Of a DNA stretch of 64,000 nucleotides, positions 25,089 to 57,499 are shown piece by piece (positions within the stretch are counted from its first letter, which is position 1; each line of letters begins with the position of its first letter). The notes beneath the pieces were generated by a model. That model worked only from the letters and a program-made list of their open reading frames with translations, was not told the origin of the DNA and searched no databases. The DNA is taken from positions 5,419,001 to 5,483,000 of the forward strand of contig NC_068561.1 of the NCBI RefSeq assembly GCF_022201045.2, given 5' to 3'. The stretch is from Citrus sinensis. Its lineage: Eukaryota; Streptophyta; Magnoliopsida; Sapindales; Rutaceae. The translations under genes were made by a program, and so were the position numbers.

Positions 25089-25214
25089 AGTAGTATCAGA
25101 GCCTTTTAATGATGAATAATTGAGAAAAATTTATGGTTTTCTTCATGATTATAAAATACTAAAAATTTAAAATTTTGAGTTTAGAAAATTCGGATTTATG
25201 TCGATGGCAGCAAC
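25083..25214 (+). mobile_element. Ty1/Copia remnant, part 1: primer-binding site and leader start
   Basis: TAGTATCAGAGCC at 25091-25103 matches the initiator tRNA-Met primer-binding site (TGGTATCAGAGC) of Copia elements, with one change. The leader continues to ...GATGGCAGCAAC and is then interrupted by Gypsy element A. It resumes at 44944, where the leader and gag start are found. Confidence 0.7.
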
Positions 25215-26486
25215 TGTTGAGTGTTAGAAAATGTATATTTATAAAGGAGAAAATCATCATTTTACACTTCAAGTTTTATTAACACCCTTACTTTTATGTA
25301 TTTAAGCTTCTTGTGATTTAATTATGTGTGCTTTATTTTAATTAAGTATTTTATGTATTTTAGGGGCATCATGGTCATTTTACAATGAACGAGAAATCAG
25401 ACGGAAAAATGTCACTGTTCACATGTACGGTACTATTCACATATACGGTATTGTCTACGTTACTGCTCACGACACTGTTCACATAGACGGATCGATGACG
25501 TGGCATTGACCGATGATGTGGCATTGACTGATGAGGTGTCACGATTCCATTGGAGAGAATTCTTATGCACTGTTGATCGGTGACATGGCAGCATGTTAGT
25601 GGACCAAAAATTACGTGTACGGTACATGCATATGCACAGAATTATTTTCAACCAAACCGCGTCACTGTTCAAACTGGTTGATTGTTCAAACTGCGTGGTC
25701 AAACCGTGCGGTCAAACCGCATACTGTTAACTGATTATGTGGCGCAATCCTGAGCGTCCAAACTGTTTTTAATCCGATGGCCATCATTTACTCAATGTAT
25801 CTATAAAAAGGGGAGCTCTCCCCCCTAATTTGATATCTCTGAATCCATTTTTGGGCTCTATTTTCTGTAATTCCTTCTCCATCTTGTATTTTCTACGTAT
25901 TTTAATAAATTTTCATTTTGCCACTAGTTCAATTATGAGTAGCTAATTTTCTTTCAAACTTGGGTTGAAGGTGAAGTCTCAACATGTGCTATGGGCTTTA
26001 TTTGGTAAATTTATTTTCTCTTCCCTTCTAATTTTTGTGGATGTTTTGACTTTTCGTCGATAAATAATAATAATCTTGTCTAGATACCACCCTGGTTTCA
26101 CCGGCTCCATAGTACAAGGTTACTATTATTTGGCACGATAAGCGCTTAGCACCATATTGATTAGAGTATAATTCATGAGGTATAGATTCTCCCCTCATGA
26201 TTTAATTGGCACTAATACGGAATATTTAGCTCATCATGCATGTTGATGCGGCTCCAGATACCCAAGTGCTCCAATTATAATAATTTCCAATTTGATTTAA
26301 TTCCGTCATTTCAATTTAAATTCTAAGATAGTCTAAATCACTTTCACCACAAATCCAACCACCCTCATAGAAAATTAATTCTACATATAATTAAAATTCA
26401 CCTCCTCATGGGATCGACACTCGTCATCATTGATCTATTCTACAATAGATTCGTGCACTTGCGAGTTTAATAAAATTTGCACAACA
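25215..26486 (+). mobile_element. 5' LTR of Gypsy element A
   Basis: The LTR runs from TGTTGAGTG to GCACAACA (TG...CA, 1272 bp). The 5-bp flanks GCAAC (25210-25214) and GCAAT (after the 3' LTR, 44939-44943) differ by one base, so the two LTRs belong to one insertion. A TATA box (TATAAAAA, 25802-25809) is followed directly by a short inverted repeat GGGGAG-CT-CTCCCC. The last ~590 bp match 44347-44938 closely. Confidence 0.85.
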
Positions 26487-26492
26487 AGTTTT

Positions 26493-26510
26493 TGGCGCCG
26501 TTGCTAGGGA
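26493..26510 (+). promoter_or_regulatory. Primer-binding site of element A (tRNA-Asp type)
   Basis: TGGCGCCGTTGCTAGGGA is complementary, with two mismatches, to the 3' end of plant tRNA-Asp, the primer typical of Athila-type Gypsy elements. It lies 6 nt after the LTR end. Confidence 0.85.
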
Positions 26511-26799: not shown

Positions 26800-28490
26800 A
26801 TGCATGGTCGAAGGTTATTATTACCTAGTCTTGAGCCTATAGACCTTAAACTTGAGAAAACACTTCGCACACACAAACACATTGTAATTAAAGATAAAAG
26901 TGAAATGGATTTGCACCAACAACAAGCACCACAGGAGAGGCCATTTAAGCACTACTTTAGTCCCTTAGCTAATTTGAGCACATCATGCATAAGATACCTA
27001 AATGTAGCTGCTAGGAGTTTTGAGTTAAAACCTAGTGTACTAAATTGTCTCCCAACATTTTATGGCCTAGAAAATGAGGACCCATACAATCATTTGAATG
27101 ATTTTCAAACTGTTTGTTAAACATTTAAATATGAGAATTTTTCAGATGATGATGTTAAATTTAGACTATTCCCATTTTCTTTAAAGGATAGAGCTCATTC
27201 ATGGCTCAATACATTGCCTACTAATAGCATTACATCATGGGAACAAATGGTTACAAAATTTTTGAATAAATATTTCACAGTGCATAAAACCAATGCTATT
27301 CGCAGGGAAATTTTAGAGTTTACCCAGAGAGAAGACAAGTAGTTTTTCGAAACATGGGAGCGATTCAATGGGCTACTCTTAAAGTGTCCACATCATGGGT
27401 ACGAGAAATGGCTCCAATGCCAATACTTTTTGGAGGGATTATTGCTGAATGTGCAAGAATGACTAATGGCAACAAGTGGGGGAGAACTAATGTCAAAAAA
27501 TACATCAAAGATTTGGGAATTCTTCCAGCGACAAGCAGATAATTTCCAACAACGGAGTCGATCACTCAGGAATATTAAAAGCATTAAAGGAGTGAATGAG
27601 GTTCATATTGGCGAGTCAACTTTGAGAATAAAAGAAGTCAAGGAGATGGTTGATGGTCTCTCTCGACAAATAGCATCGTTATCGACTGCTAAATCAACAG
27701 AACCACATGACCATGACTCATACTCAGATCAAGCCAATGCCATAGGTGTAATGAGAAAACCATCAAATTACAATCCATACTCCAACACATATAACCCTGG
27801 ATGGAGAGACCACCCCAATTTTTCATGGTCTCAAGGATTCCAACAGAATGGACCAGCAGCTCCAGCTCCACCAATGCAACCAATTCCTCAAGCCTCTCAG
27901 CCACCATTTAGACCATACAATCAGAACCAGAACTACTCTCAACCCAAACCATGGGAGGATGCATTCCAGAATTTCAGGAATGTTACTCACTCCACGATTG
28001 AGTAACAGAACCGCACCATTGATGAACTACGAAATGAGATGAGAGCAGGCTTCAATTCACAAGCCTAATCAATTTCAAGCCTCGAGAAAATGGTGGGACA
28101 ACTTACTTCTTCAGTTCATACCTTGGCAATGACTGTTGAGAAAGGCAAGTTTCCAAGTCAACCAGTGCCTAATTCTAAAGGAGTATATAAAATAAGTACC
28201 AGTTCACTACAGCAGCATGGAGAGGTCAAAGTAGTCATGACCTTGCGAAAAGGAAAAGAAGTCGACAACAAAGTGGAGATGCCGGTGACAAAAGAAAATC
28301 AAATTGTACATGTGAATGTTGAGGACTCACCATCGGAAGAGAAAGAAAAAACCAACCCACCAGAATATGTTCCCAAAGCTCCATTTCCTCAGAGGTTAGC
28401 TAAAGGAAAGAAGGAAAAATCCACAGGTGAGATTCTTGAAATCTTCGAACAGGTAAGTGTTAACATCTTTTTACTTGATGTTATAAAATA
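26800..28490 (+). pseudogene. gag of element A (Athila-like)
   Basis: This is the capsid/nucleocapsid polyprotein of a Ty3/Gypsy retrotransposon. One frame is kept throughout, broken only by stops near 27118, 27340, 27460, 28003, 28066 and 28488. Recognisable are the Athila-type gag core (LPTFYGLENEDPYNHL; FRLFPFSLKDRAHSWLNTLP) and a Pro/Gln/Asn-rich tail (27750-27960). The CCHC zinc knuckle present in element B is not visible here. Relative to element B the first half is strongly diverged. Confidence 0.88.
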
Positions 28491-29583
28491 AGTTTCATCT
28501 TATGCCAAGTTTCTTAAAGACCTTTGTACTAAAAAGAGAAATATTCACGCTCAAAAGAAGGCATTTTTAATAGAACACATTAGTTCTATACTCCAACACA
28601 AAATTCCTCTAAAATGCAAACACCTAGGCTCCCCTACCATCTCATGTAGTATAAGAAACCACACAATTGAGAATGCTTTATTGAATTTAGGAGCTAGTGT
28701 AAATCTGTTGCCTTATTCAGTATTTGTGAAACTTGGACTGGGCGAATTACACCCAACTCCAGTGGTGTTATAGTTTGCAAATCGGTCCACAAAAATACCT
28801 CGTGGTATTGTGGAGGACGTGCTTATCCAGGTAGAGAAGTAAGATCTTTCCTTGGGCATGCTAGTTTTTATAGACGTTTCATTAAAGATTTTAGCAAAGT
28901 TTCTAGACCCTTATGCAATCTACTTGCTAAGAATGTACATTTTTATCTTTGATGATTCATGTCTTGTGGCATTTGAAAAATTAAAGTAGTTGTTGACATC
29001 ATCACCCATCATTTAGCCCCAAAACTGGAGCTTACCATTCAAGCTCATGTGTGATGCATCAGATTATGCAGTATGAGCAGTATTAAGACAAAGAATTGAT
29101 CGAATTCCTTATGTTATTTACTATGCTAGTATGACATTGAATGATGCACAATTGAATTATTCAACTACTAAAAAAGAAATGCTAGCAGTGATATTTGCAT
29201 TGGAAAAATTTCGATCTTATCTCATTGGTTGTAAAATAATTGTATTCACAGATCATACTGCTCTTAAATATCTTCTCATAAAGAAAGATGAAAAAGCTAG
29301 ACTAATTCGTTGGGTGTTACTTTTGCAGGAATTCAACTTAGAATTTAAAGATAAGAAAGGCATAGAGAATGTTGTGGCTGACCATCTCTCTTATCTCTAT
29401 TTTGACACAATTACAGAACCATTAACATTGAATGAGTCATTTCCAGATGAACAATTAATGAGTGTGGAAGTATTACCATGGTATGTTGACATCGTGAATT
29501 ATCTTGTTATAGGTAAACTTCTAGAGCATTGGACCAAGCAAGACAAGGCCAAATTTTTTACAGAAATAAAGAATTTCTTTTAG
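28491..29583 (+). pseudogene. Protease and RNase H of element A, reverse transcriptase deleted
   Basis: The protease region reads LGASVNLLPYSVF (normal D-x-G-A changed to L-G-A) and VEDVLIQV. At about 28830 it jumps directly to REVRSFLGHASFYRRFIKDF, which in element B lies about 1.4 kb further on. The whole RT core, including its catalytic F-M-D-D block, is missing. RNase H follows ([30 protein letters not shown]) with stops and one frame change, then [14 protein letters not shown]. The element cannot copy itself without help. Confidence 0.88.
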
Positions 29584-29584
29584 G

Positions 29585-30772
29585 ATGACCCATATTTGTT
29601 CAAGTATTGTGCAGATCAAATTGTTAGATGATGTGTCCCAGAAAGTGAAATTCATAATATCCTTTCATTATGCCATAAACAAGCTTGCGGAGGCCATTTC
29701 AGTGCTAAGAAAACAGCTACTAAAGTTTTACAATCTGGTTTCTATTGGCCAACTATATTTCGAGACGCTTATACTTTCTGTTCTTCGTGTGATAGGTGTC
29801 AACGAATGGGGAGCATTACACGAAGGAATATGATGCCACTAAATCCAATTTTAGTGGTTGAGATTTTTTATGTGTGGGGTATCGACTTCATGGGACCATT
29901 TCCCCATTTTTTTTGCCATCAATACATATTGGTTGCTGTTGACTACGTATCGAAATGGGTAGAAGCAATTCCATGTAGAACCAATGATCACAAGGTGGTG
30001 ATAGGATTTTTGAAAAGCAACATTGTTTCACGCTTTGGATTCACTCGAGCAATAATCAGTGATGGTGGTGTCCACTTTTGTAACAAAGCATTTAAAGCTC
30101 TTTTGACAAAGTATTCAATCACTCACAAAGTGGCGACCCCATATCATCCGCAAACTAGTGGCCAAATTGAGATCTCCAATCGAGAAATAAAGCACATTAG
30201 AAAAGACGGTGAGGCCAGACATAAAAGATTGGTCATTAAGACTTGATGATGCATTATGGGCATATAGAACGGCTTTCAAGACCCCGATTGGGATGTCACC
30301 CTACAGGCTAGTGTATGGAAAAGCTTGCCACCTACTTGTGGAACTCGAGTGTCGTGCGTACTGGGTCATCAAGAAATTCAACTTTGACATGCATCAAACT
30401 AGCTCAGAAAGAATATTACAACTGGCAGAACTTGAAGAAATTCGCAATGATGCATATGAAAATGTCAAGATTTACAAGCAGCGAATAAAAGTCTTTCATG
30501 ACAAGCAAATTATGAGAAAATCTTTCACTCCAGGTCAGAAAGTGCTTTTATTCAATTCTCGCTTGTATCTATTCCCAGGTAAGTTACGCTCTCGATGGTC
30601 TGGCCCCTTTATTGTTCATACTGTTTTTCCACATGGGGCAATTGAAATTAAGGACCCAAAGAACAGTGTCATGTTTAAAGGTAATGGTCAAAGATTAAAG
30701 TCATATCTAGAGTACCAACCACATGAAGAAGACACCGAAATAAGTTTGAGTGACCCACCAAATTTGAATTGA
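29585..30772 (+). pseudogene. Integrase of element A
   Basis: The zinc-binding start (CHYAIN..., CDRCQ) is split across frames. The DDE core is clear: [19 protein letters not shown] and [15 protein letters not shown] (catalytic Asp, Asp, Glu). The C-terminal part (30209-30772) reads [20 protein letters not shown] and ends [13 protein letters not shown] in a shifted frame. At least one frameshift near 30210 makes it a pseudogene. Confidence 0.88.
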
Positions 30773-31274: not shown

Positions 31275-31832
31275 ATGGACATAAACGAGATTCTAGCAAA
31301 GCTTCACAATCGATTCCCTTCACTTTCTCAGAATGCCCTCCTTACAATCTATAAAGTTCGGTCCGAACGCATGTGATTGCTCATGAGGAATAACATACCT
31401 GCTGATATCCGTTGGTTAATCGAGGCCAAAGTACGATTGGCAGGTGAGTTACCTCCAAAATTTATAGCATACATGCCTGGTTGTGGTAAAAGTAATTATG
31501 TAAGAAAACAAAGAGCTTGAAGAATTTCTGTTGCTTGTCATAAATGTGCCAGAATGAAATGCAATAAAAACTCATATTCTTTAGAAATGGTGTCTGATAA
31601 CAGGGAAGATAAGATTCAATTCATTAGGGATGGCTTGAATAAAGAGTCATTGGATGATATCCTTTTGTCTCTTGAAACGCATCCTAGTGGATATGTGCAA
31701 GGAGCGATTCTCTAGTTATGGCCATTATTCTAGAAAGAGCATGCACGATATAGTCTCGGGAATCTGACTATAAACGACCCTGTTTACCAGTTTATAAGAA
31801 AACTGGATGGGAAGCCTATCCTCGACCCATAG
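31275..31832 (+). pseudogene. ORF-X of element A: unrecognised 185-codon ORF with a Cys cluster
   Basis: The frame starts MDINEILAKL and ends FIRKLDGKPILDP-stop, with internal stops at codons 34, 82, 147 and 153. Conserved with element B are MPGxGK, a Cys cluster (CHKCARMKC, residues 88-96), NREDKIQFIRDG, NKESLDDILLSLETHPSGYV and SLGNLTINDPVYQFIRKL. The Cys cluster could bind zinc. I recognise no family. A conserved 60-base block follows the stop (31838-31901) and reads VFKLFLDVK. The upstream block GATAACAGTACTCCGTGAC (about 31202) is also shared with B. Confidence 0.6.
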
Positions 31833-32150: not shown

Positions 32151-33415
32151 TGATGAGCATAATTTATATACATATTTTACCATTTATTATCTAATTACTA
32201 GTTATTTTTATTTGTTATTTTTAATTAATTGAATTATTTTATTGCATAGGGAATTAATTGGAGATTGGAAATAAAAAGTGCAAAAAGAATAACAATTTGG
32301 GAGAATATTAATTGAAGCCGTGACAGAGTTAAGAGCCAAGAGCAATTTGCATTGAATCTCAATTCTCCAATTGAGTTGCACGTGCATGGCATTGCAAAAG
32401 TGGAAATAAATTTAAATGGGGCCCACACTTGACTTTCAAAAGTGGAATTAATGGCTTATGGTGGCGTTATTATGGAAGCTTTGTTTGATAATTGGAAAAG
32501 GATTTTAATTAGTAGACAAAGAGGATTCGGTGGCTAAGCATTATAAAAAGAGAGTTTTGGCTTTTGAATGATGTAGCCGCCAGAGGACGGAAACAAAAGG
32601 GAGGACGCGAGACAGAGAGAATAGAGGTAGCGGCAGCAGCACTTCGGCTTTCCATGGCTGATTTTATTTATTTTGTTGCTCCCAATTCAAGTATGTCTAA
32701 CTAATTTTCTTATACTGAGGTTAAGGATGAAACCTTATTCAATGAAATAATTATCTTTTTATTTAATTAATTCCCTATATATATTCTTTGATGATTATGA
32801 TTTTTATTTCACATGATTAATTGGATGTTAATAAAATCTTTTCATCAATTTTGTCATGCATTATTGATTGTTAGGATTAATATTCGATTAAATCTATGCT
32901 TAGATTTATAAAGTTTATACATGATTATCTTTGATTCTATGTCTTTCATTAAATTGTTTACATGGAGTGCTTAAGAAACTTTGACTCTTTGTTATTCAAT
33001 ATGTTTACATGAGATTCTTAGATGTCATATTATTAAGCAGAAAAAGAACCTACACAAGATTAATTTTATTTGGGCTTAATTGTTATATCCATGAGATGAC
33101 ATAAATTGATTTCGAGTTGTCACTGTAAAATTGAGGATTAATTAATAATTAGATAATTATTAGTTGAATAGTGGTGGATTCTAAAGACTTGGTAATTCTT
33201 ATCTTATTGAATTCTCCTTTATTTTAATTGCTTCCTTAGTTTAATTGGTTTAATTTTCTTAGAAACTCAATTTGGTCAACTAGGTTAGAATTAATATTAA
33301 TTTTAGATTTAAATTAGACTTTTAAATTTATAACAATCCCTGTGGGATCGACCTCGTTACCATTATTCTATTTCTAGATTCGTGCGCTTGCGAGTATATT
33401 AAAATTTTCACAACA
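32151..33415 (+). mobile_element. Solo LTR of another Gypsy family, inserted in element A
   Basis: It runs from TGATGAGCAT to TTTTCACAACA (1265 bp) and is flanked by GTATT (32146-32150) and GTATC (33416-33420), a 5-bp duplication with one change. No PBS or coding follows it. Element B has no such insert between ORF-X and the LOG-like ORF, so it entered A later and lost its interior by LTR-LTR recombination. A TATAAAAAG box is at about 32545. Confidence 0.8.
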
Positions 33416-33423
33416 GTATCCCA

Positions 33424-34067
33424 ATGGCAGCTACTCCCCATAGACAATTCCAGAACATTTGTGTGCTTTCTGGATTTAACTATGGCAAACATAAAGAGTT
33501 CATTGAGGCAGTCATAGATTTGGTCGAAGTATAGCAGAAAGAAAATTACACTTGGTGTATGGAGGGGGTAACCGAGGGTTATCAAAATTGGTCTCAAAAG
33601 TTGCTTTTGTTAGAGGAAGTTAAGTGTTAGGCATCATCCCAAGAGCTCTAAACTCTTTGGGTAGTTTATCTGACTCACCGACTGGAGAAGAGTTAGTCGG
33701 CTCAGGTATGCAAGAAAGAATAACTGAAATACTTAATCATGCTGATGCTTTTATTTTCCTTTCAGGAAATCTTGCAACACTGGAGGCACTTATCACACTA
33801 GCATCTTGGGCCCATCTGCACATTTACCAGAAACTATTCGGTTTGTTAAATGTCAATAACTTTTATGATGGCTTCATCGCATTTCTTAACCATGCAATAA
33901 AAAATTATTTCATTCCTTCCACAGCGAAAAAGCTTTTTATTTGTCCTCACACTGCTAATGAGCTACTTGATATGTTACAAGCTTATATACCGGAGCCAGA
34001 CCCTTGGACCTTTGTGTTGGAGCGTCCAAATAATGATGGTAACAGTAGCCGCAGTAAGAAGTACTAA
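33424..34067 (+). pseudogene. LOG-like ORF of element A
   Basis: LOG (LONELY GUY) enzymes release active cytokinin bases from cytokinin riboside monophosphates. The reading starts MAATPHRQFQNICVLSG, keeps HLVYGGGNRGLSKLVS, SGMQERITEILNHADAFIFL and LLNVNNFYDGFIAFLNHAIK, and ends in EPDPW. The usual PGGxGTxxE site reads SGNLATLEA, so the catalytic Glu is Ala. A one-base slip near 33527 and a TAA near 33620 break it. There are no introns, unlike host LOG genes. It stops at 34067, right at the LTR of element B. Element B carries the same ORF in the same place. Confidence 0.88.
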
Positions 34068-34068
34068 T

Positions 34069-35166
34069 TGACACTAAAAAGTGTACATTTAATAAGGATA
34101 AAATTATTAGTTTTTCACTTATTGTGTCGATTAATGCATTCATTATTTCTAAATTATTTTAATACTCCCCAAATATATTTTATGTTAAACTAATTCGTAA
34201 TTTGTTAATTTTTATCTTGTAAATATTTTTCAGGAATAAAAATAGAATTTGAATTGAAAGCGGGAACAAAGAAGAACTACTAGAATAAAATTGAAGAGAT
34301 ATAATAATAAATAATAAATAATAAATAAAATAAAATAAAATAATAAAAAGAACAAAAACATGTTGGTGTTGGTCAGGAGGCCATCACGCCTCCTAACCAT
34401 CACACAATTCAATATATAGATATATATAATATAAAAATAAAATAAAATATTAATATTAATAAAATAAAATAAAAGAAGACGATTCCCTTGCCTATAAAAG
34501 GCAAGGGGATGCAGGCCAGAAGAGGGAGAGCTATTTTGAGAGCTGAAACCGAGACTGAAGAATTTATATCTTTGTTTCTTTTCTTTTCTTGTTTCCTTTT
34601 GTATCAATTTTCTTTGTAATATATTTCAAAAAGTTTATCAAATAAAAAGAGTGTTGTGTTTTCTTTCAATATGAGTAGCTAATTTTATTAAGCTGAGGTG
34701 TATGGTGAAGCTCAATGTTTCAAATTATTAATTATTATTATTTTCTCAAATGAGTTTTTAAGTTATTTAATTCTTTTCTAATTATTTTTATATCATGTTA
34801 ATTTATAAATCTCACTGGTATTTATGGTATTTTGACATAATGTCGACACATTAATAAAGTGTGGCACATTAGGTACTTTATTCTATATTTATCCACACAT
34901 ATAGAATTAAATGATGTAATAATTAATTAGTAAAAGTGAGTCAAAATATAAATGAGAGAGTATTAAAATTATAGTTTGAATACAGAGAGTGGATCCTAAA
35001 CCTTAGCTTATTTTTAAATTGATTTCAAATAATTTTTTTTCCCCACAATTAATTTTCTTAGTTTTACTAGATTTAAAACTCCCCGTGGTTCGACTCCGGT
35101 CTCACCGGGTTATATTATAACTAGACACTCTTATACTTGAGAGTAATATACTTTTGAGCCACGTCA
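34069..35166 (+). mobile_element. 5' LTR of Gypsy element B
   Basis: It runs from TGACACTAAAAAGTGT to GCCACGTCA and is followed by a primer-binding site. It starts immediately after the LOG-like ORF of element A, so B inserted into the end of A. Its sequence differs from the element A LTR. No matching 3' LTR exists in the window. A TATA box (34493-34499) sits exactly between the inverted arms CCCTTGCC and GGCAAGGG. Confidence 0.75.
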
Positions 35167-35172
35167 AGTTTT

Positions 35173-35190
35173 TGGCGCCGTTGCTGGGGA
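35173..35190 (+). promoter_or_regulatory. Primer-binding site of element B (tRNA-Asp type)
   Basis: TGGCGCCGTTGCTGGGGA matches the complement of the tRNA-Asp 3' end with one mismatch and lies 6 nt after the LTR end. Confidence 0.88.
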
Positions 35191-35783: not shown

Positions 35784-37472
35784 ATGCGTCGTTGGTCTTG
35801 TACAAATAGTGGTAGATTAATTAAAAAATCACCTTCACCACCCTTAAATATGGCTGACATAGGAGCTGAAAATTGTTTGGAGCACGAAAATGACCAAGCC
35901 TTGCAAAATGTTCATGAACAACCTAGGACCCTTAGAGACTTCATGCATCCTACTAGTACAGGGTCACCATCATGCATAGTTTTCCTTTCTGATGCATCAC
36001 ATTTTAATTTCAAACCTGGTATCATTCAAATTCTTCCTACTTTTCATGGTTTTGAGTATGAAAATCCATATTTGCATTTAAGGGAATTTGAGGAAGTCTG
36101 TAACACATGTACTGATCAAAATTGTAGCATAAATATAATCAGGCTTAAGTTTTTTCCTTTCTCATTTAAGGATAAAGCTAAAATTTGGCTACAAAATCTT
36201 AGGTTAGAATCCATCAGAACTTGGGATGAAATGCAAGCACAATTTTTGAAAAAATTCTTCCCACCCCATAGAACAAATTCTTTCAAAAGACAAATCACCA
36301 CTTTCACTAAAAAATCAGGAGAAACCCTCTACCAATATTGGGATAGGTTTAAAGAACTACATAACATTTGCCCACATCACGATTTTGAAGCATAGAGATT
36401 AGTGTCTTATTTCTACGATGGATTAACATCCCAAGGTAGACAAGTCGTTGAAATGATGTGTAATGGTGAGTTAAGGGATAAAAGTCCTGAAAATGCATTA
36501 GACTATCTTGACTATATAGCAGAAAATGCACAACACTGGGATACATTTGGTTCTTATGAGTCATCATGTAAACCCCAGTCATCTCCATCTGGTGGAGGCA
36601 TGCATAACCTTAGAGAAGACCATGATTTTCAAGCCAAATTTGCATCATTAGCTAGAAAAGTCGAAGCATTAGAGTCGAAAAAGAATGATCATGTAAAGTC
36701 TATTCAAAATATTTCATGTTATGTTTGCGATTCTACTGACCATTCTACGTAGGACTGTCCAACTTTACCAGCTCTGAGAGAAAGTTTGTATGAACAAGTA
36801 AATGTCGTTGACAATTTCAAAAGGCCAAATCCAAATCCATACTCCCAAACTTACAACTCTGGTTGGAGAAACCACCCAAATTTCAGTTGGAGAAATGACA
36901 ATCATGCACAACCTTCACAACCAGTCCCTCCATGTCAAAATTTCCAAAACTCCCAAAGTTACCCACCATATGTCCCACCACCAAGAAAAACTCTGGAAGA
37001 CACATTGCATTCGTTTATTAAAAAAAAAAAAGAGTCGATCAATAACCAAACGATGCAAACCTTAACCAATTTGACAAAAACTATCTCCAAATTTACATCT
37101 GCTCTAACCATACATGAAAAAGGAAAGTTTCCTGCTCAACCTAAACCAAACCCCAAGAGTCAACAACATACTCAGATGGGAAATTCAGGAAACCAAAATA
37201 TGAGTCAAGTCAAATCGGTTATAATCCTTCGTGGTGGTAAAGTGGTTGAAAAACATATTGTGGACCCTCGTGAAACTAGTAAAGATTCAATTTTAGAAAA
37301 TAAGGAAGAGTTTATCGAACCTTTAACCCATGAAGAAATAACCAACTCTCCTCTTGTACCCTCATTTCCTCAAGCACTAATCAAGCCAAAGAAATCAAAC
37401 CACAGTCCAGAAATTTATGAAGTTTTTAAACAAGTAAAAGCTAACATTCTTCTACTGGATGTCATTAAATAG
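35784..37472 (+). pseudogene. gag of element B (Athila-like)
   Basis: One frame, broken by TAG at 36393, 36750 and 37470. The gag core reads LPTFHGFEYENPYLHLREFE and FKDKAKIWLQNL, followed by ETLYQYWDRFKELHNICPHH and YFYDGL. A CCHC zinc knuckle (CYVCDSTDHST-stop-DC, about 36718-36760) binds RNA in related elements; its Trp position is now a stop. A Pro/Asn/Gln-rich linker and the pre-protease end (VKANILLLDVIK) follow. Each stop fits loss of Trp or Gln by a C-to-T or G-to-A change. The frame continues into pol. Confidence 0.9.
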
Positions 37473-38195: not shown

Positions 38196-39179
38196 ATGCA
38201 GGTACCTATAGGTGACGATGACCAATCGAACTTAGAAGATACGGTACAACCTGAAGAAGCAAACGAAGAGGAAGCACTAGAGCTCGAATTAAAGCCCTTA
38301 CCACAAAAATTGAAGTATGCCTATCTTAGAGAGCAACAGACATATCCGGTGGTAATTTCTTCTCAGCTCACACATGATCAAGAAGGTGAGTTGTTATCTG
38401 TACTAAAAAGACATAAAATTGCATTTGGTCGGACCTTAAAAGACATAAAAGGCATTAATCCTTTAATTTGCACACACCGAATACACTTAGAGGAAAATGC
38501 CAAAACAACTCGTCAACCACAAAGAAGACTAAATCCTCATATAAAAGAAGTGGTAAAGAATGAGGTCCTTAAACTACTAGATGTAGGAATTATCTACCCT
38601 ATCTCTGATAGTAAATGGGTAAGTCCAACACAAGTAATACCAAAAAAATCTAGAATAATTGTTGTAAAAAATGAAAAAGGTGAACCAATCCCAACACGAA
38701 TTCCATCTAGTTGGTGCATGTGCATTGATTACAGAAAATTAAATGATGCCAATAGAAAAAATCATTTTTCCCTTATATTTCTAGACCAAATTCTCGAAAG
38801 AGTAGCTGGACATCTATACTACTGCTTTCTTGATGGCTACTCTGGCTATTATCAAATCCCTATAGCCTTAGAAGACCAGGAAAAGACCATATTCACATGC
38901 CCATTTGGAACATTTGCATTTAGGAGAATGCCCTTTGGACTTTGTAATGCTCTTGTAACATTTCAAAGGTGCATGCTAAGCATTTTTAGTGATATGGTTG
39001 AAAATTGTCTAGAGGTTTTTATGGATGATTTAATTGTATTTGGTAATTCTTTTGATACATGTCTTGATAATCTAGAAAATGTTTTGAAAAGGTGCAAAGA
39101 AAAAGGACTAGTTTTAAATTGGGAAAAATGTCATTTCATGACCACTTCTGGAATTGTCTTACGCCATATTGTGTCTTAA
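38196..39179 (+). pseudogene. Reverse transcriptase of element B
   Basis: A 327-codon uninterrupted block holds RT motifs in order: LLDVGIIYPISDSKWVSPTQ, CMCIDYRKLND, FLDGYSGYYQIPI, TCPFGTFAFRRMPFGLCNA and the catalytic EVFMDDLIVFG. The F-M-D-D form is usual for Athila-type elements. It ends at a TAA (39177) inside the thumb region. Element A has lost exactly this part. Confidence 0.92.
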
Positions 39180-40010: not shown

Positions 40011-41181
40011 TTCAAGTACTACTCCGATCAAATTTTTCGAAGATGCATACCAGACGATGAGGTAAGTAGGGTCATTCAATTTTGTCATTCTAAAGCATGA
40101 GGTGGCCATTTTCTTCAAAAAAGACAGCTGCAAAAATATTGCAGTGTAGATTTTATTGGCCTACATTATTTAAAGATTCACATGCATTCTGTAAAATGTG
40201 TAAGAATTGTCAAATGGTAGGGTCATTTCAAAGCGAAACATGATGCCTTTAAACCCCATCCTTGTCATTGAAATCTTTAATTGTTGGGAAATTGATTTTA
40301 TGGGCCCTTTTCCATCATCATTTGGATTTGTATACATTTTGGTTGCTGTTGATTATGTTTCAAAATGGATCGAGGCGATTCCTTGTTGGCACAATGATCA
40401 CAAGATTGTGATCCACTTTTTTAAAGAAAATATTTTGAGCAAATTTGGAATACCTCGAGCCATTATCAGTGATGGAGGTAAGTATTTTTATAATAAGCCA
40501 TTTGAGTCATCAATAAAGAAATATGAAATTACACATAAGGTTGCTACCCCTTATTACCGTCAAATAAGTGGTCAAGTTAAATTAGCAAATAGGGAGATAA
40601 AACAAATTTTAGAAAAGACAGTTAATCCAAACCGTAAAGATTAGTCTCTTCGACTAATTGATACACTTTGGGTATATCGTACTGCTTTTAAAACATCTTT
40701 AGAAATGTCACCCTATCGGCTTGTTTATGGAAAATCTTGCCATTTACCATTAGAGCTTGAACATAAATCATTTTGGGCCATTAAAGCTTTTAATTCAAAT
40801 CTTGATGATGCTGGCAATGTGCGTAAATTGTAAATAAATGAACTTGAGGAATTAAGGAATGATGCATATGAGAATTCTAAAATTATTAATGCAAGAACCA
40901 AATTTTTTCATGACAAAAGAATTTTTCGGAAAATATTTGAAATTGGTCAAAAAGTGTTGCTTTATAATTCTCGTCTTCATTTATTTCCAGGGAAGTTAAA
41001 GTCAAAGTGGAATAGTCCATTTATTGTAAAAAATGTGTATATATATGGAGTCGTAGAAATTGAGAATCCAAAGGATGGTGTCACATTTAAAGTTAATGGC
41101 CAAAGATTGAAACCATATCTGGAATACCAACCACATGAAGCAGATACTGAAATCCATTTGAGTGACCCACAAAAATTTTGA
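40011..41181 (+). pseudogene. Integrase of element B
   Basis: The zinc-binding end (CKMCKNCQ, about 40192) is followed by a frameshift near 40210. The DDE core then reads [30 protein letters not shown] and [20 protein letters not shown]. Stops near 40642 and 40831 follow. The end (40954-41181) reads KVLLYNSRLHLFPGKLKSKW and LEYQPHEADTEIHLSD, the same ending as in element A. Confidence 0.9.
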
Positions 41182-41775: not shown

Positions 41776-42303
41776 ATGTCAAGCATGGAAGAAATACAAT
41801 AAAATTTGCATCAACATTTTCCTTCTCTCCCTCAAAATGCTCTTAAGAAGATTTACAAAGCTCATTGTGAACGACTGCGTTTGTTAATTGAAGCAAAGGT
41901 CTGATTGTCAGGTGAGTTTTCTGATCCATTCATTTCCTACATGCCTGGCTTTGGTAAAGGTACATTTGCTAAGAAAAGAAGAGCTAAGCGACTTGGCTCT
42001 GAATGTTCTCACTGTGTAAGACTTGCTTGCAAAAATCCACGTTGTAAAGCTTTAGGAATGGTTTCTGTAAATCGTGAAGATAAAATCAAATTCGTTATGG
42101 ATGGCATGAGTAAAGAATCGTTGGATGATATCTTACGATCTCTTGAGACACATCCGAGCGGATATGTTCAACGTGAAATTCAAAATTTGTGGAAGCTGTT
42201 CCAAAACGAAAGTGCACAGTTTAGTCTTGGGAATTTGACTCTAAAAGATCCTGTTTGCCAGTTTATAAGAAAACTGGATAGAAAGCCTATCCTCGACCCA
42301 TAA
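41776..42303 (+). pseudogene. ORF-X of element B
   Basis: The frame starts MSSMEEIQ and ends FIRKLDRKPILDP-stop, with stops only at codons 9 and about 44. Positions 41905-42303 are open. Conserved with A are YMPGFGKG, a fuller Cys cluster (CSHCVRLACKNPRC, spacing C-x2-C-x4-C-x4-C), NREDKIKFVMDGMSKESLDD, LETHPSGYV and SLGNLTLKDPVCQFIRKL. An open extension upstream of the ATG (TVLRDFLSRYSQFPTITE) could be part of the protein. The family is unknown. A nucleic-acid-binding or zinc-binding role is only suggested by the Cys cluster and basic residues. Confidence 0.65.
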
Positions 42304-42630: not shown

Positions 42631-43299
42631 ATGGCAGCAACTTCAAGCAGTCAACTTAAAAATATTTGTGTGCTTTCTGGATTTCGTTATGGAAAGTATA
42701 AGGAGTTCGTTCAGGCAGCCATAGATCTTGGTCGTGCTATAGTAGAGAGGAAACTACATCTTATATATGGAGGAGGTGACCGAGGGTTATCAAAGCTTGT
42801 CTCTGAAGCTGCTTTCGTTCGAGGAAGCCAAGTGCTAGGCATCATTCCAAAAGCCTTAAAACCTTTAGGATGTCTACCTGACTCACCAACTAGAGAAGAG
42901 TTAGTTATCTTAGGTATGCAAGAAAGAATATCTGAAATGTTAAATCACGCTGACGCTTTCATTTTCTTACCAGGAGACCTTACAACTTTGGAGGCGCTAA
43001 TTACATTTGCTTCTTAGGCCCATTTGAATATCCATAAAAAACTCATCAGTTTGTTAAATGTTAATAACTTTTATGATAGCTTGATAACATTTCTTAATCA
43101 TGTAATAAAAAATTACTTTATTCAATCCTCAGGGAAAAAACTCTTTATTTGTGCTCCTACTGCTAATGAGTTACTTGATCTTTTGCAAACTTACAAACCA
43201 GAGCCAGATCCTATGACTTTGGCATTGGATTGGGCAACTGATGACAATGGCAATAACTCTCATAAAAAGTGTAAATTAGATTTAACTTTCCATTTGTAA
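42631..43299 (+). pseudogene. LOG-like ORF of element B, full length with one stop
   Basis: It has 222 codons, the usual length of plant LOG proteins, no introns, and a single TAG at codon 129 (43015-43017) where element A has Trp. Order of motifs: NICVLSGFRYGKYKEF (11-26), HLIYGGGDRGLSKLVSEA (43-60; the YGGG phosphate-binding motif), LGMQERISEMLNHADAFIFL (94-113; the conserved Arg is kept), then PGDLTTLEA (114-122) in place of PGGxGTxxE, so the catalytic Glu is Ala, and LLNVNNFYDSLI. Family knowledge says the Glu is needed for phosphoribohydrolase activity, so this copy is probably not a normal cytokinin-activating enzyme even without the stop. It lies between ORF-X and the 3' untranslated region. 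Confidence 0.9.
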
Positions 43300-44346
43300 A
43301 TATTTCCAACAGTGGCCAGGTGATATCTTCTAAACTCTACTCTTTTCTTTAGACATTGAGGACAATGTCTTTTTCAGGTTGGGGGGAGGGAATAGTTGAT
43401 AATTGTGGAATGTCTCAGTCATAGTGATGTTTTTACTAATTTTTGTTGTAAAGACTAACTTTGGATAAAAGTTTAAGTTGAAGATGGCAGAATATAGAAT
43501 GTAGTGTCTCTAGAAACGCATCTTCTTAATTTTTGTGTTTTCTTCCAAAAAAAAATGTTTCTAACTTTTTGTTTTCGGTCTTTTTCTCTTAATTATCTCC
43601 CTTAAGTTTCTGCAATTAGTCCTAATTTTTTAGTGTTTTCTTAAAAAACAAATTATTTTCTTTTACGGTGTGATCTTTTAACATTGGATAACATCATGAT
43701 TTTTAAATTTTGGTGTTCGTATTATCTTTGGCCTTGAGTTATGTTACACTATGTTTTTCCCTTTGCATGTTGAAACGTAAATTGAGAAATTGAATGAGTG
43801 AAATTGATTAAGCCATTTGGAGGAATATACATGTTATGAAAAGACCACGCGAGTTTTTGAGCCTATTATCCTTGGAGAGTAACCTTGTTTGCCTATACAG
43901 TTTCACAATTTATTGTACAAGATCTCAATATTATTTAAAAAAAAATTTGTGCAGTTGCATCTAAAAGTCCATTGAACTAGTGGATATGAAAGATTATATA
44001 GAACTCTAAAAGATGACAGAAGGCCATCTTTGATCCGTTTGAGCCTTTCTAGCCAACCCTATTATAAAGAATCCATAGTTAACCCCTTTGAGCCTTTGAA
44101 AAATTTTTTTTTTCTTTTTTAACCTATCATATTTTCCTACTCCAATGAGGAGTATCACCTTATATTTTATGTTTTCCATCACACAATTATATTTAAAAAT
44201 AGGGATGATTATGTATTCCTAATAATGGTGCTATAAAAAAAAAGATGATATGTATATATCAATTAATAAAAAAAAGGAGAAAAAAATCCAAGCAAAAAGA
44301 AAAAAAAGCACCTTATAATCTCCAAAAAGTCCCATATTTTTCAAAC
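43300..44346 (+). other. 3' untranslated region of the Gypsy element with hairpin and purine tract
   Basis: GACATTGAGGACAATGTC (43352-43369) forms a 7-bp stem with a 4-nt loop and is followed by the purine tract GGTTGGGGGGAGGG (43377-43390). This arrangement is common near the 3' end of Athila-type elements. Then come about 950 bp without ORFs, including A-rich runs (44220-44310). The junction to the shortened 3' LTR lies near 44346. Confidence 0.6.
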
Positions 44347-44938
44347 ATATATTTTAATAAATTCCCATTTTGCCCCTAGTTCAATTATGAGTAGCTAATT
44401 TTCTTTTAAGCTTGGGTTGAAGGTGAAGTCTCAACATATGCCATGGGCTTTATTTGGTAAATTTATTTTCTCTTCCCCTCTAATTTTTGTGGATGTTTTG
44501 ACTTTTCGTCGACAAATAATAATAATCTTGCCTAGATACCGCTCTGGTTTCACTGGTTCCCTAGTACAAGGTTATTATTATTTGGCACGATAAGCCCTTA
44601 GCACCATATTGATTAGAATGTGGTTCATGAGGTATGGATTCTCCCCTCATGATTTAATTGGCACTAATACGGAATATTTAGCCTATGGTGCATGTCGATG
44701 CGGATCCAGATACCCAAGCGCTTCAATTATAATAGTTTCCAATTTGATTTAATTCCGCCATTTCAATTTAAATTCTAAGATAGTCTAAATCACTTTCACC
44801 ACAAATCCAATCACCCTCATAGAAAATTAATTCTACATATAATTAAAATTTACCTCCTCGTGGGATCAACACTCGTCACCATTGATCTATTCTACAATAT
44901 ATTTGTGCACTTGCGAGTTCAATAAAATTTGCACAACA
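44347..44938 (+). mobile_element. 3' LTR of Gypsy element A, lacking its 5' half
   Basis: About 590 bp align with the end of the 5' LTR at about 25898-26486 and end in the same GCACAACA. The first ~680 bp of the LTR, including its TATA box, are absent. The following GCAAT pairs with GCAAC before the 5' LTR as a target duplication. It belongs to A although it stands after the internal part of B. Confidence 0.8.
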
Positions 44939-44943
44939 GCAAT

Positions 44944-47791: not shown

Positions 47792-49024
47792 ATGGATTCT
47801 CTACTCTGTAGAGCATCATCCTTTTCTAGCTCTTCCTCTGGAAGAACTAGTGATTCGAAGAATGTTGTGAATTCTGAAGAATTTGTAATTGAAGACTTTA
47901 ATAAAGCAATTGATAATTGGAAATTACCAAAGGTTAATAAAGAAATGATTTATAAAACAAAAAAGCTTGATTTTTTAAAGAATGATTATGTTATAAAGAC
48001 TGAAGAACGTGACATAACCCTTTCAAAGCCTTTTGAAACAATTCATTTGTTTTCAGAACAATCTTTAAAGAAATTAAGAGATAAAAATTTTAATTATATT
48101 CACATCGGCTTAATACAAGTCGGCATAAAACCCCTTACTAAAGAAGGACTTAATACTTCCATACTTGCTGTCCTAAGAGATGGGCGATTCATCTCTTTTG
48201 ATGATTCTTTACTAAATAGTATAGAATCAAGTCTTTGTAAAGGACCCATTTCATTTAATTGTTATCCAAACATAACGATTTTCTTAAAAGACAAGAACAT
48301 TTTAAAAAGCATGATTTTACAAATCAAAACCCACAATTATGATATGATTGAGGGATCTATTCCAGTAGCCTTAATTTATAAAATTTCTTACAAAGCCATG
48401 ATTTCTGCGTTTAGCACGCAACATAAATTCCAGTCAAAAAGAGATGAGACTCTTCTCTTACAGACTAACCTATCTAAAGCCAATACTGTTATTCCAAAAT
48501 CAATCCAATGGAAAGACGTCAATCTTCCAGACGAATGGATTCTTGAAGGAGCCACTGCTCCAGTAATACCAAAACAACTTGAGCCAAATACAGATTTGCA
48601 AAATGTGACTCAGTATTCAGATGGTAAAGTCAAATTATCCTTTCGGAGATCTACATCATCCAGATTCCTTGATAAAGATTCATGTTCAAGCATTCCTTCA
48701 TTGGAAAGAAAATTTTCAAAAATACCTTCTATTATAAATCTCCCTTTCCAATCTGTAAAGAGTCAACCTAGGTTTTCCACTTCAAATATACCTAGTTCCT
48801 CTATTCACTCTGTTGACTATACCACTAGTGTTCCGCACTCAATCTACACTAGCAGTCAACATGAACAAAGACAAGAAGAGAATGAACCTTCTCCTCCAAC
48901 TTCTCCTATATTTTCTGCTGTCACAGAAAATGTGATAAATGTTATTGAAAAAGATTTTGAACTGGATAAAACTCTCCTCCATAATGATTTCTATTCAGCT
49001 AATAATAAAGAAAAAAGACTCTGA
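47792..49024 (+). pseudogene. Endogenous pararetrovirus ORF1, movement-protein region
   Basis: This is the N-terminal part of the ORF1 polyprotein of an endogenous Caulimoviridae member. A region with the 30K-type movement-protein pattern (YIHIGLIQVGIKPL, LAVLRDGRF, about residues 105-130) is followed by a long Ser/Pro-rich stretch. The movement protein moves virus between cells through plasmodesmata. The frame is open for 410 codons and ends at a TGA at 49022, after which the same frame continues. It is an old copy and, because of later breaks, cannot produce the full polyprotein. Confidence 0.82.
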
Positions 49025-55130: not shown

Positions 55131-55333
55131 AAAATTAAAATGATAATTTTTAATTGCTGATACCTAAACGTCATTGATCGCTATTACTAAAGCTATTGAT
55201 ACTTCAGTATTAGTAATTAGTGATACATATCTGTTAAACGCGGAAAATTATCCAAATATATGTATATACTGATACTTTTAAATAAAGTGTCAGAACACAA
55301 GTATCAGTAAAGACCATTTTTCTAGTAGTGAAT

Positions 55334-57499
55334 ATCCAAGACTTTCAGAAAGAGATTAAAGAAATCAAACTTGAAATTAAAGAATTAAAAGAGAAGCAGA
55401 AAAATGACTCAGAAACAATCCAGCTATTATTGCAAAAACAATTGGAAGACAATTCTGATAAAGAATCAAACTCTGGTGAAGAAAATGGGCAACAACTTGA
55501 AAACATTGAATCTATCCCCAATGATTTTCTTTTTGTTTTAAAACAAATCACTACCAGAAAATACATGATTAAAATCACTTTAATTTTTTCTAAAGATTTT
55601 GAAATTGACACCATTGCCCTCCTTGACACTGGTGCCGATTTAAATTGCATTAAAGAGGATATCGTCCCTAAAAAATTTCATGAAAAGACAAAGGAAAGAC
55701 TGTCAGCCGCCAATAATTCAAAACTAAAAATTAAATCAAAAGTTGATGCCTCAGTGCATAACAATAGCTTTGAATTCAGAACTTCCTTTCTTCTTACAAA
55801 TGACATACACCATACTGTCATTTTAGGAACTCCGTTTATAAATCTTATCACCGCATATACTGTCAATTATGATAGTATATCTTTTAAAGCAAAAAACCAA
55901 AAACTTGTTTTCCCTTTTATTGAGAAACCAAAAACAAGAAACTTAAATATTGTTAAAGCTTGTTCTGTTTACCAAAACCAAATCAATGCCATACTTAAAT
56001 CTAAACAAAATAACTTGCTTTGTTTAAAAAATGATTTAAGTTTACAAAGAATTGAAAGCCAATTACAAAAGGACTTTATACAAAGAAAAATCTCTGAATT
56101 TAAAGATCTCATTGAAAAAGAAATATGCGCTGATTTACCATCTGCTTTTTGGAACAGAAAACAACATTTGGTAGATTTGCCCTATGAAAATTCTTTTGAT
56201 GAAAAACAAATACCCACTAAAGCTCGTCCAATCCAAATGAACATGGAATTGGAACAACACTATAAAAATGAGATAAAAGATTTAAAAACTAAAGGACTCA
56301 TTGTAAAATCTAGATCCCCGTGGTCTTGTGCCGCTTTTTATGTAAATAAAAATTCCGAAATAGAAAAAGGAACACCAAGACTTGTAATAAATTACAAACC
56401 CTTAAATAAAGCATTAAAATGGATTAGATATCCCATACCTAATAAAAAAGATTTGCTCCAGAAATTGTGTTTTGCCTTTATTTTTTCAAAATTTGACATG
56501 AAATCTGGTTTTTGGAAAATTCAAATTCACCCTAAAGACCGTTATAAAACTGCCTTTACTGTTCCTTTTGGATAGTATGAATGGACTGTAATGCCATTTG
56601 GACTAAAGAATGCACCCTCAGAATTTCAAAAAATCATAAATGATATTTATAATCCTTTTTCTGAGTTTTGCATTGTTTATATAGACGATGTGTTGATTTT
56701 TTCTCAAACAATTGATCAGCATTTCAAACATTTAAAAACCTTTTACCTTGCCACTAGAAAGGCTGGCCTAGCCATTTCTAGTTCTAAAGTCTCATTGTTT
56801 CAAACAAAAGTCAGATTCCTTGGTCACTATATTTCGAAAGGAACTATTACGCCTATTGAGCGATCACTTTTATTTGCTGATAAATTTCCTGATAAAATTC
56901 TTGATAAAACACAACTACAAAGGTTTTTAGGTAGTTTAAATTATGTTCTTGATTTCTGTCCTAACATCAATAGGATGTCTAAACCACTGCATGATAGGTT
57001 AAAAAAGAATCTTGTTGCTTGGACAGATGAACATACTAAAGCTGTTAGACTAATAAAGAATTCTGTTAAAAACATTCCATGTTTATTTCTTGCAAATCCT
57101 GCATTACCTAAAATTGTTGAAACATATGCATCAGATTTAGGTTATGGAGGCATATTAAAACAAAAGGAAGATAATAAAGAACAAATAGTACAATATGTTT
57201 CAGCTCACTGGAATGATTGTCAGAAAAACTATTCTACTATCAAAAAAGAAATTCTTTCTATTATTCTGTGCATTTCGAAATTTCAAAGCGATCTGTTAAA
57301 TCAAAAATTTTTGCTTAGGATTGATTGCAAAGCTGCAAAACATGTTTTAGAAAAAGATGTTCAAAACATTGCATCGAAACAGATTTTTGCACAATGGCAA
57401 GCCATTTTGAACGTTTTTTATTTTGATATTGAGTTTATTAAAGGAGATACAAATTCTCTCCCTGATTTTCTAACCAGGGAATTCCTTCAAAACAGATAA
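55334..57499 (+). pseudogene. Endogenous pararetrovirus ORF1, protease, reverse transcriptase and RNase H
   Basis: After the CACTA insertion the frame resumes with a coiled-coil-like Lys/Glu-rich part. An aspartic protease follows (LLDTGADLNCI, then VILGTPF). RT comes next, with SPWSCAAFYV, RLVINYKPLN, FDMKSGFWKIQIHP, VMPFGLKNAPSEFQ and the catalytic YIDDVLIFS. RNase H ends the ORF (YASDLGYGG, KKEILSIILCISKF, RIDCKAAKH). A single TAG at 56573 between two RT blocks interrupts it. The RT type and the gene order fit Caulimoviridae, close to florendoviruses. No integrase is present, as expected of a pararetrovirus. The stop codon TAA at 57497 touches the ATG of ORF2. Confidence 0.9.

What the first reader, a model, noticed from the sequence alone, without database searches (positions are those of the whole stretch)
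42631..43299. Athila-like retrotransposons carrying an intronless LONELY GUY (LOG)-like gene
A full-length LOG-like ORF sits downstream of integrase in element B. A broken copy sits at the same place in element A (33424-34067). The two elements have different LTRs and strongly diverged gag, so the gene was probably acquired by a common ancestor and kept. Host LOG genes have several introns, so capture through mRNA is likely. A hormone-metabolism gene as a standing part of a plant retroelement lineage would be unusual.
Basis: partly seen in the sequence, partly recalled or inferred. Interest (0 to 1): 0.92.

Follow-up and report, generated by a model that had tools for sequence, protein, structure and literature searches.

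The report
Jumping gene with disarmed hormone enzyme
A large family of citrus jumping genes carries a relative of a plant hormone-activating enzyme, and the key catalytic residue is replaced in every listed copy that could be scored, so the gene is likely kept as a non-catalytic helper of the element rather than to make hormone.

Summary
The LOG-like sequence is real, but the copy at 42631-43299 is not full-length: an in-frame TAG at 43015 cuts it, and copy A is broken too. The host is Citrus, probably C. sinensis. LOG-bearing Ty3/gypsy elements in Citrus are already in print (PMC9289625 passages; Steinbauerova 2011, recalled), so the headline is known. Added here: (1) the gene belongs to at least three diverged subfamilies of this genome, in the order RT-RNaseH-INT-accessory ORF-LOG-polypurine tract; (2) stop-free copies of different subfamilies differ with dN/dS 0.18-0.24, so selection kept the protein; (3) the catalytic Glu of PGGxGTxxE is absent from 118 of 118 scorable element proteins and present in 120 of 120 LOGs listed for a plant query, so it is predicted to be a pseudoenzyme; (4) between the two window elements LOG is less diverged at silent sites than pol, which suggests exchange of the 3' module; (5) the ORF just upstream belongs to a family matching flexivirus nucleic-acid-binding proteins. 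Best reading: a selected, non-catalytic accessory protein, possibly pairing with host LOG; that role is untested.

The parts
25215..26486 (+). 5' LTR of element A (TG...CA); primer-binding site TGGCGCC at 26493
   Evidence: ends set by eye
26824..30757 (+). broken gag-pol region of element A (RNase H, integrase core)
31302..31831 (+). broken accessory ORF (NABP-like) of element A
32151..33415 (+). likely solo LTR inserted between accessory ORF and LOG of A; flanks GTATT/GTATC
33424..34067 (+). broken LOG-like gene of element A
34069..35166 (+). 5' LTR before element B; primer-binding site TGGCGCC at 35173
   Evidence: ends set by eye
35784..36395 (+). gag ORF of element B (PF03732)
38196..39179 (+). 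reverse transcriptase ORF of element B (PF00078)
40207..40644 (+). integrase core ORF of element B (PF00665)
41806..42303 (+). broken accessory ORF (NABP-like) of element B
   Evidence: family matches
42631..43299 (+). LOG-like gene of element B, in-frame TAG at 43015-43017
43379..43390 (+). polypurine tract
43397..44938 (+). 3' LTR after element B; last 589 bp 93% identical to A's 5' LTR

Best explanation
The ORF at 42631-43299 is a stop-interrupted copy of a LOG-fold gene that lies between a second accessory ORF and the polypurine tract of Athila-like retrotransposons in what is probably a Citrus sinensis genome, where it occurs in at least three diverged subfamilies whose stop-free copies show purifying selection, and it is predicted to be a catalytically dead pseudoenzyme that likely helps the element by binding a partner, possibly host LOG subunits, rather than by making cytokinin. 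Shown: gene order, occurrence in three subfamilies, dN/dS well below 1 between them, replacement of the catalytic Glu and of several substrate-site residues. Inferred: inactivity, the binding role, pairing with host LOG (whose pocket is built by two subunits), capture from a spliced mRNA, and exchange of the 3' module between families.
For: LOG homology. Accessory ORF beside LOG in 47 of 52 distinct LOG-picked places and LOG beside it in 8 of 8 accessory-ORF-picked places; polypurine tract 81-111 bases after LOG in 71 of 76 loci; RT, RNase H and integrase upstream in 3 of 3 stretches, one per subfamily. dN/dS 0.18, 0.23, 0.24 between subfamilies. Catalytic Glu in 0 of 118 scorable element proteins and 120 of 120 listed LOGs of a plant query; phosphate-site Ser replaced by Phe in 115 of 117; adenine-site Lys by Ile in 115 of 119. 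Two records of one bacterial LOG, 5zbj and 5zbk, differ as E and A at that same position. One clade for element LOGs.
Against: No activity, binding or expression was tested. The second proposed catalytic residue, Arg, is kept in 106 of 119 and Trp of the prenyl site in 115 of 119, so some other reaction is not excluded. The structure model failed (pLDDT 40). dN/dS used stop-free copies only, and within subfamily B it is 0.50. Only 11 of 36 B-type matches of at least 82% identity are stop-free. Partnership with host LOG is a guess from dimer architecture.
Confidence: 0.6

Rival explanations
1. The element LOG is a working enzyme, with an altered substrate or mechanism, that raises local cytokinin and so favours dividing cells in which insertions are inherited.
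For: Purifying selection between subfamilies; the LOG fold families match; the Arg and the GGG loop are mostly kept.
Against: Catalytic Glu in 0 of 118; phosphate-site Ser, both Gly of GG.GT, adenine-site Lys and prenyl-site His and Glu replaced in nearly all scorable proteins.
Confidence: 0.12
2. The protein binds a small molecule without hydrolysing it, as a sink or sensor of a nucleotide or cytokinin.
For: The same Glu-to-Ala difference separates two records of a bacterial LOG, of which one is probably the AMP-bound form (inferred from the review passage); T of GT and the E before the catalytic one are kept.
Against: Ser to Phe and Gly to Asp at the phosphate site, and Lys to Ile at the adenine site, would disturb nucleotide binding (effect inferred).
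Confidence: 0.15
3. LOG was simply inherited with pol from the common ancestor of the families, and only looks younger because its silent sites evolve slowly.
For: For subfamilies B and C, LOG pS 0.40 is close to RT 0.54, RNase H 0.50-0.55 and INT core 0.44 and above the INT C-terminal piece 0.27-0.30.
Against: Window A vs B: pS 0.52 for LOG and 0.58 for the accessory ORF against 0.81-0.82 for INT and RT-RNaseH; 0 of 5000 permutations reach the difference. The LOG/pol ratio is thus lower for A vs B than for B vs C, which a slow silent rate alone does not predict.
Confidence: 0.3
4. LOG is a neutral passenger captured once and copied along.
For: Many copies are decayed: 25 of 36 B-type matches carry stops, and both window copies are broken.
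Against: dN/dS 0.18-0.24 between subfamilies and 0.20 between the window copies; stop-free 222-224-residue ORFs in all three subfamilies.
Confidence: 0.06

Closest known systems
LOG/YgdH-bearing Ty3/gypsy consensuses of Citrus sinensis, C. clementina and Populus trichocarpa (PMC9289625: passages, and one section); Athila-like elements similar to LOGL4 (Steinbauerova et al. 2011, not held; abstract recalled)
   Same: Same host genus, same kind of element, same captured domain; very likely the same elements.
   Different: The passages I saw say nothing of the lost catalytic motif, of selection, of subfamilies, or of the virus-type ORF beside it. Whether Steinbauerova 2011 does, I could not see.
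Plant LOG enzymes (AtLOG3, AtLOG8)
   Same: Fold family and length; about 43% identity to an Arabidopsis LOG3-type protein
   Different: Intronless, carried by a retrotransposon, catalytic Glu and several pocket residues replaced
Flexivirus nucleic-acid-binding proteins (Viral_NABP PF05515, Carla_C4 PF01623)
   Same: Profile matches of the upstream accessory ORF family: 36 and 35 of 45 members at E up to 1e-3; 6 of 10 members over each curated cut-off
   Different: Carried by a retrotransposon; about 182-185 aa; the window's own copy is under both cut-offs; fold comparison not significant (best E 0.55)
2-ODD (m6A demethylase) capture in orchid Ty3/gypsy elements (PMC9289625)
   Same: A host-type enzyme domain fixed in a Ty3/gypsy lineage
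   Different: By that paper's title its domain is functional; here the catalytic residue is lost

Membership tests
LOG (cytokinin riboside 5'-monophosphate phosphoribohydrolase) | LOG/TIGR00730 fold family by profile | tested here: met
   PF03641; TIGR00730 121.9 and 124.4 bits against cut-off 96.35 for P0046 and P0001
LOG (cytokinin riboside 5'-monophosphate phosphoribohydrolase) | PGGxGTxxE motif with catalytic Glu | tested here: not met
   0 of 118 scorable element proteins have the Glu; 120 of 120 listed LOGs of the AtLOG3 query do
LOG (cytokinin riboside 5'-monophosphate phosphoribohydrolase) | NCBIfam equivalog NF058542 over its cut-off | tested here: inconclusive
   87.9 bits against 300, but the Arabidopsis control P0241 also fails with 132.4
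LOG (cytokinin riboside 5'-monophosphate phosphoribohydrolase) | Phosphoribohydrolase activity | not testable with these tools
   needs bench work
Athila lineage of Ty3/gypsy | Ty3/gypsy gene order with RT, RNase H, integrase | tested here: met
Athila lineage of Ty3/gypsy | Extra ORF(s) between integrase and 3' LTR | tested here: met
   that this marks OTA elements: PMC6317226 passage
Athila lineage of Ty3/gypsy | Primer-binding site of the type TGGCGCC... after the 5' LTR (label recalled) | tested here: inconclusive
   TGGCGCCGTTGC at 26493 and 35173; no comparison with a tRNA was made
Athila lineage of Ty3/gypsy | Athila ORF-1 domain PF03078 | tested here: not met
   no match in 10 ORFs of A and B; but only 16% of Athila elements have it (PMC6317226 passage), so it is not a strict mark
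Athila lineage of Ty3/gypsy | RT in the Athila clade of a reference tree; no aRH domain | not tested
   no reference RT set was at hand
Flexivirus nucleic-acid-binding protein (accessory ORF) | Pfam PF05515 or PF01623 over the curated cut-off | tested here: met
   met for the family: 6 of 10 members for each profile; not met by the window's own copy (Carla_C4 15.3 bits, Viral_NABP 13.2; its best match was C6_DPF, 0.0076, also under cut-off) nor by P0121
Flexivirus nucleic-acid-binding protein (accessory ORF) | Same fold | tested here: inconclusive
   model pLDDT 64.8; no match with E up to 0.001, best E 0.55, though the three best entries are named RNA silencing suppressors
Flexivirus nucleic-acid-binding protein (accessory ORF) | Nucleic-acid binding or silencing suppression | not testable with these tools
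   needs bench work

The most novel reading that the evidence does not exclude
An Athila-like lineage has put together a two-gene module against its host: a relative of flexivirus RNA-silencing suppressors and a LOG-derived dead enzyme that poisons host LOG dimers and so tunes cytokinin; the module is swapped between retrotransposon families and has spread to more than a thousand places in a Citrus genome.
Probability: 0.2. Interest if true: 0.88.

Novelty: new variant of a known kind. Interest (0 to 1): 0.62.

Why it matters
Plant retrotransposons rarely keep captured genes. A captured hormone enzyme that lost its catalytic residue yet stays under selection would be a pseudoenzyme put to use by a mobile element, and gives a concrete, testable route by which a retroelement could act on its host. 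The neighbouring virus-type nucleic-acid-binding ORF, whose relatives bear names from Citrus, Xanthoceras, Acer and Populus, would link plant retroelements with flexivirus accessory genes. It also warns annotators: many Citrus proteins named cytokinin riboside 5'-monophosphate phosphoribohydrolase are element proteins without the catalytic residue.

Tried and rejected
Fold of the element LOG: the model was too poor (pLDDT 40), so no fold search was made with it. Scans of IMG/VR with an accessory-ORF protein and a LOG protein found no relative. Papers: searches found 0 papers joining Carla_C4 or carlavirus nucleic-acid-binding protein with retrotransposons; one search found one, on host sensors by its title; one search found four, seen as a listing only. 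Steinbauerova 2011 is not held. I considered that bacterial LOGs may lack the Glu naturally, since 5zbk reads TLEA, but 5zbj reads TLEE, so 5zbk is probably an engineered mutant (inferred); 5zbk served as the bacterial row of the tree. A host LOG on C7 whose 3' exons are joined (L081) was checked as a possible donor; it keeps GTLEE and other introns and is only 33% identical to element LOGs over the best piece. Separate captures by A and B are not supported by the tree, which holds 18 of the 120 listed element proteins and 18 of the 120 listed LOGs besides AtLOG8, one bacterial LOG and the two window copies.

Full report
Host. The window is G000:C6:5419001-5483000 of a 299.7-Mb assembly in 11 contigs. 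The named hits among the 120 best to the LOG protein are all from Citrus. P0034, named Citrus sinensis, lies on a contig of 32,942,340 bases, exactly the length of G000:C2. P0111 (Citrus x changshan-huyou, 149 aa) equals the window ORF over its first 95 and last 55 residues, as a gene model that skips the part with the stop. So the host is Citrus, probably C. sinensis (inferred).

Observation. 42631-43299 reads as a LOG-like protein of 222 residues with one in-frame TAG at codon 129. The two open parts each match PF03641 (2.9e-9 and 5.3e-8), and so does an open piece of copy A (7.7e-16). With X at the stop the best solved structures are AtLOG3 (E 2e-42) and AtLOG8. LOG homology is certain; 'full-length ORF' is wrong for this copy; A is broken as said.

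Anatomy. Both elements have Ty3/gypsy parts and TGGCGCCGTTGC just after the 5' LTR (26493, 35173); B has a polypurine tract about 80 bases after LOG. In A a likely solo LTR with flanks GTATT/GTATC lies between the accessory ORF and LOG. The LTR after B matches A's 5' LTR over its last 589 bp at 93%, and B's own 5' LTR only over 51-55 bp: the locus is rearranged or chimeric, which I did not resolve.

A standing part of the lineage. In the own genome PF03641 has 1560 first-look candidates; 150 were scored, all over the cut-off. First-look numbers for protein queries are 2106 and 2094 (element LOGs), 1759 (Arabidopsis LOG) and 1887 (accessory ORF); they are not confirmed matches and only show the scale. 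I read 76 loci at 60 distinct places (by DNA identity of a 2-kb core 59 groups) in three subfamilies: A (like P0046, 8 places), B (like P0001, 30; window copy B is L044) and C (like P0008, 22). The accessory ORF, whole or in part, is beside LOG in 47 of 52 LOG-picked places (63 of 68 loci; the five without are L033, L034, L045, L052, L054, all B), and LOG beside it in 8 of 8 places picked by the accessory ORF. A polypurine tract lies 81-111 bases after LOG in 71 of 76 loci (A 8 of 8, B 25 of 30, C 38 of 38). RT, RNase H and integrase lie upstream in 3 of 3 stretches fetched, one per subfamily. The places are the best-scoring ones, not a random sample.

Selection. Among distinct full-length LOG sequences without in-frame stops (7 A, 9 B, 11 C) mean dN/dS is 0.18 (A-B), 0.23 (A-C), 0.24 (B-C), and 0.25, 0.50 and 0.27 within A, B and C (Nei-Gojobori with Jukes-Cantor on mean differences). 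Copies with stops were left out, which favours selection somewhat. The accessory ORF gives 0.20, 0.25 and 0.32 between subfamilies and 0.09, 1.07 (6 pairs) and 0.23 within A, B and C. Window A against B, both broken, gives 0.20 for LOG and raw pN/pS 0.31 [0.23-0.41]. Many B-type copies are decayed: 11 of 36 matches of at least 82% identity are stop-free.

Active site. The Glu that ends PGGxGTxxE (Glu122 of CgLOG, proposed as catalytic together with Arg99; PMC4979012 passages) is Ala in 105 of 118 scorable element proteins and Glu in none; 2 of the 120 listed have a gap there, and 527 further hits were not listed. The phosphate-site Ser is Phe in 115 of 117, the adenine-site Lys is Ile in 115 of 119, the prenyl-site Glu is Thr in 115 of 119, the prenyl-site His is Gln in 116 of 119, and the second Gly of PGG is Asp in 116 of 118. 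The Arg is kept in 106 of 119 and the prenyl-site Trp in 115 of 119. All 120 listed hits of the AtLOG3 query keep GG.GT..E (120 of 7988 hits, so this control is LOG3-like). 5zbj and 5zbk, two records of one bacterial LOG, read E and A at this position; a review passage says the structure was solved free and with AMP (PMC8234997), so 5zbk is probably a mutant made to hold the substrate (inferred). I predict that the element protein does not hydrolyse cytokinin ribotides.

Origin and history. A tree of 40 rows puts all 20 element rows, window A (a 127-residue piece) and B included, on one side of a 100/100 branch; 19 plant LOGs form one group (98/85) with a bacterial LOG outside it; A and B fall in two different supported subclades. 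The element stem is long (1.19), the host set is mainly LOG1/3-like plus AtLOG8, and the program warns that long branches meet, so the donor is not identified. Host LOGs of this genome are split: of nine exon matches of 60-90% identity eight end at query residue 54-60 and one runs to 73, whereas many element matches (for example those of 39% identity) run on to residue 70-71; L080 matches in five pieces, one of them spanning a further intron-like insertion. An intronless copy fits capture from spliced RNA (inferred). Silent divergence (pS) of window A and B is 0.52 for LOG and 0.58 for the accessory ORF, against 0.76 for the gag region, 0.82 for RT-RNaseH and 0.81 for integrase (pol against the two accessory genes: 0 of 5000 permutations). 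Subfamily data agree for A against B and C (LOG 0.46 and 0.49; INT core 0.79-0.95; INT C-terminal piece 0.65-0.74 for the genome copies). For B against C, LOG (0.40) lies near RT, RNase H and INT core (0.44-0.55) and above the INT C-terminal piece (0.27-0.30) and the accessory ORF (0.26). The simplest reading is that the 3' module passed between the A and the B/C lineages after their pol genes parted (inferred; few pol stretches, high divergence).

The neighbour. The accessory ORF belongs to a family of about 182-185 aa. Of 45 members that I chose from 120 listed (261 hits), 36 match Viral_NABP and 35 Carla_C4 at E up to 1e-3, best 1.1e-8 and 3.7e-8. Of ten tested singly, six pass the curated cut-off for each profile. 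The Citrus member P0121 and the window's own copy do not; the fused Citrus gene models P0067 and P0113 just do for Carla_C4, and P0106 just fails. Members bear names from Citrus, Xanthoceras, Acer and Populus. A Foldseek search with a model of middling confidence gave nothing significant (best E 0.55), though its three best entries are named RNA silencing suppressors. Direction of transfer, if any, is open.

How it may work. The pocket lost catalytic and phosphate-site residues, so action by protein contact seems likelier than catalysis or nucleotide storage (inferred). LOGs work as dimers whose pocket is built by both subunits (PMC4979012 and PMC8234997 passages), so a dead subunit could spoil host LOG and lower local cytokinin. 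Nothing here tests this.

Prior work. LOG/YgdH domains in Citrus and Populus LTR retrotransposons are in print (PMC9289625: passages, and the section 'Screen for Non-canonical Domains'), which cites Steinbauerova 2011; I recall its abstract as naming two Athila-like elements similar to LOGL4, but could not see it. I saw no paper on the lost motif or on the virus-type ORF in these elements in the searches, in a library of open-licence papers and mostly as listings. Verdict: a known kind of element with new and unexpected properties.

Noticed in passing
47792-49024 and 55328-57499: A movement-protein domain (PF01107) and aspartic protease, RT and RNase H domains: probably an endogenous caulimovirid, apparently interrupted or rearranged.
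   Followed up: no
11656-14031 (-) and 18548-20089 (+): Two MULE-type transposase ORFs (PF10551; 791 and 513 aa).
   Followed up: no
41806-42303 and 31302-31831: The accessory ORF between integrase and LOG belongs to a family matching flexivirus nucleic-acid-binding proteins.
   Followed up: partly
L012, L059, L060 and other C-type loci: Different places share an identical 2-kb core around LOG (L012/L060 and L059), and many C-type places give the same score, which suggests recent spread of subfamily C.
   Followed up: partly
L081 (G000:C7:1412200-1414600): A host LOG gene whose 3' exons are joined, unlike eight other host LOG matches; catalytic GTLEE kept.
   Followed up: partly
25210-25214 and 44939-44943: GCAAC before A's 5' LTR and GCAAT after the 3' LTR of B agree in 4 of 5 bases, as if these two LTRs had bounded one insertion; their 5' halves do not match.
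   Followed up: no
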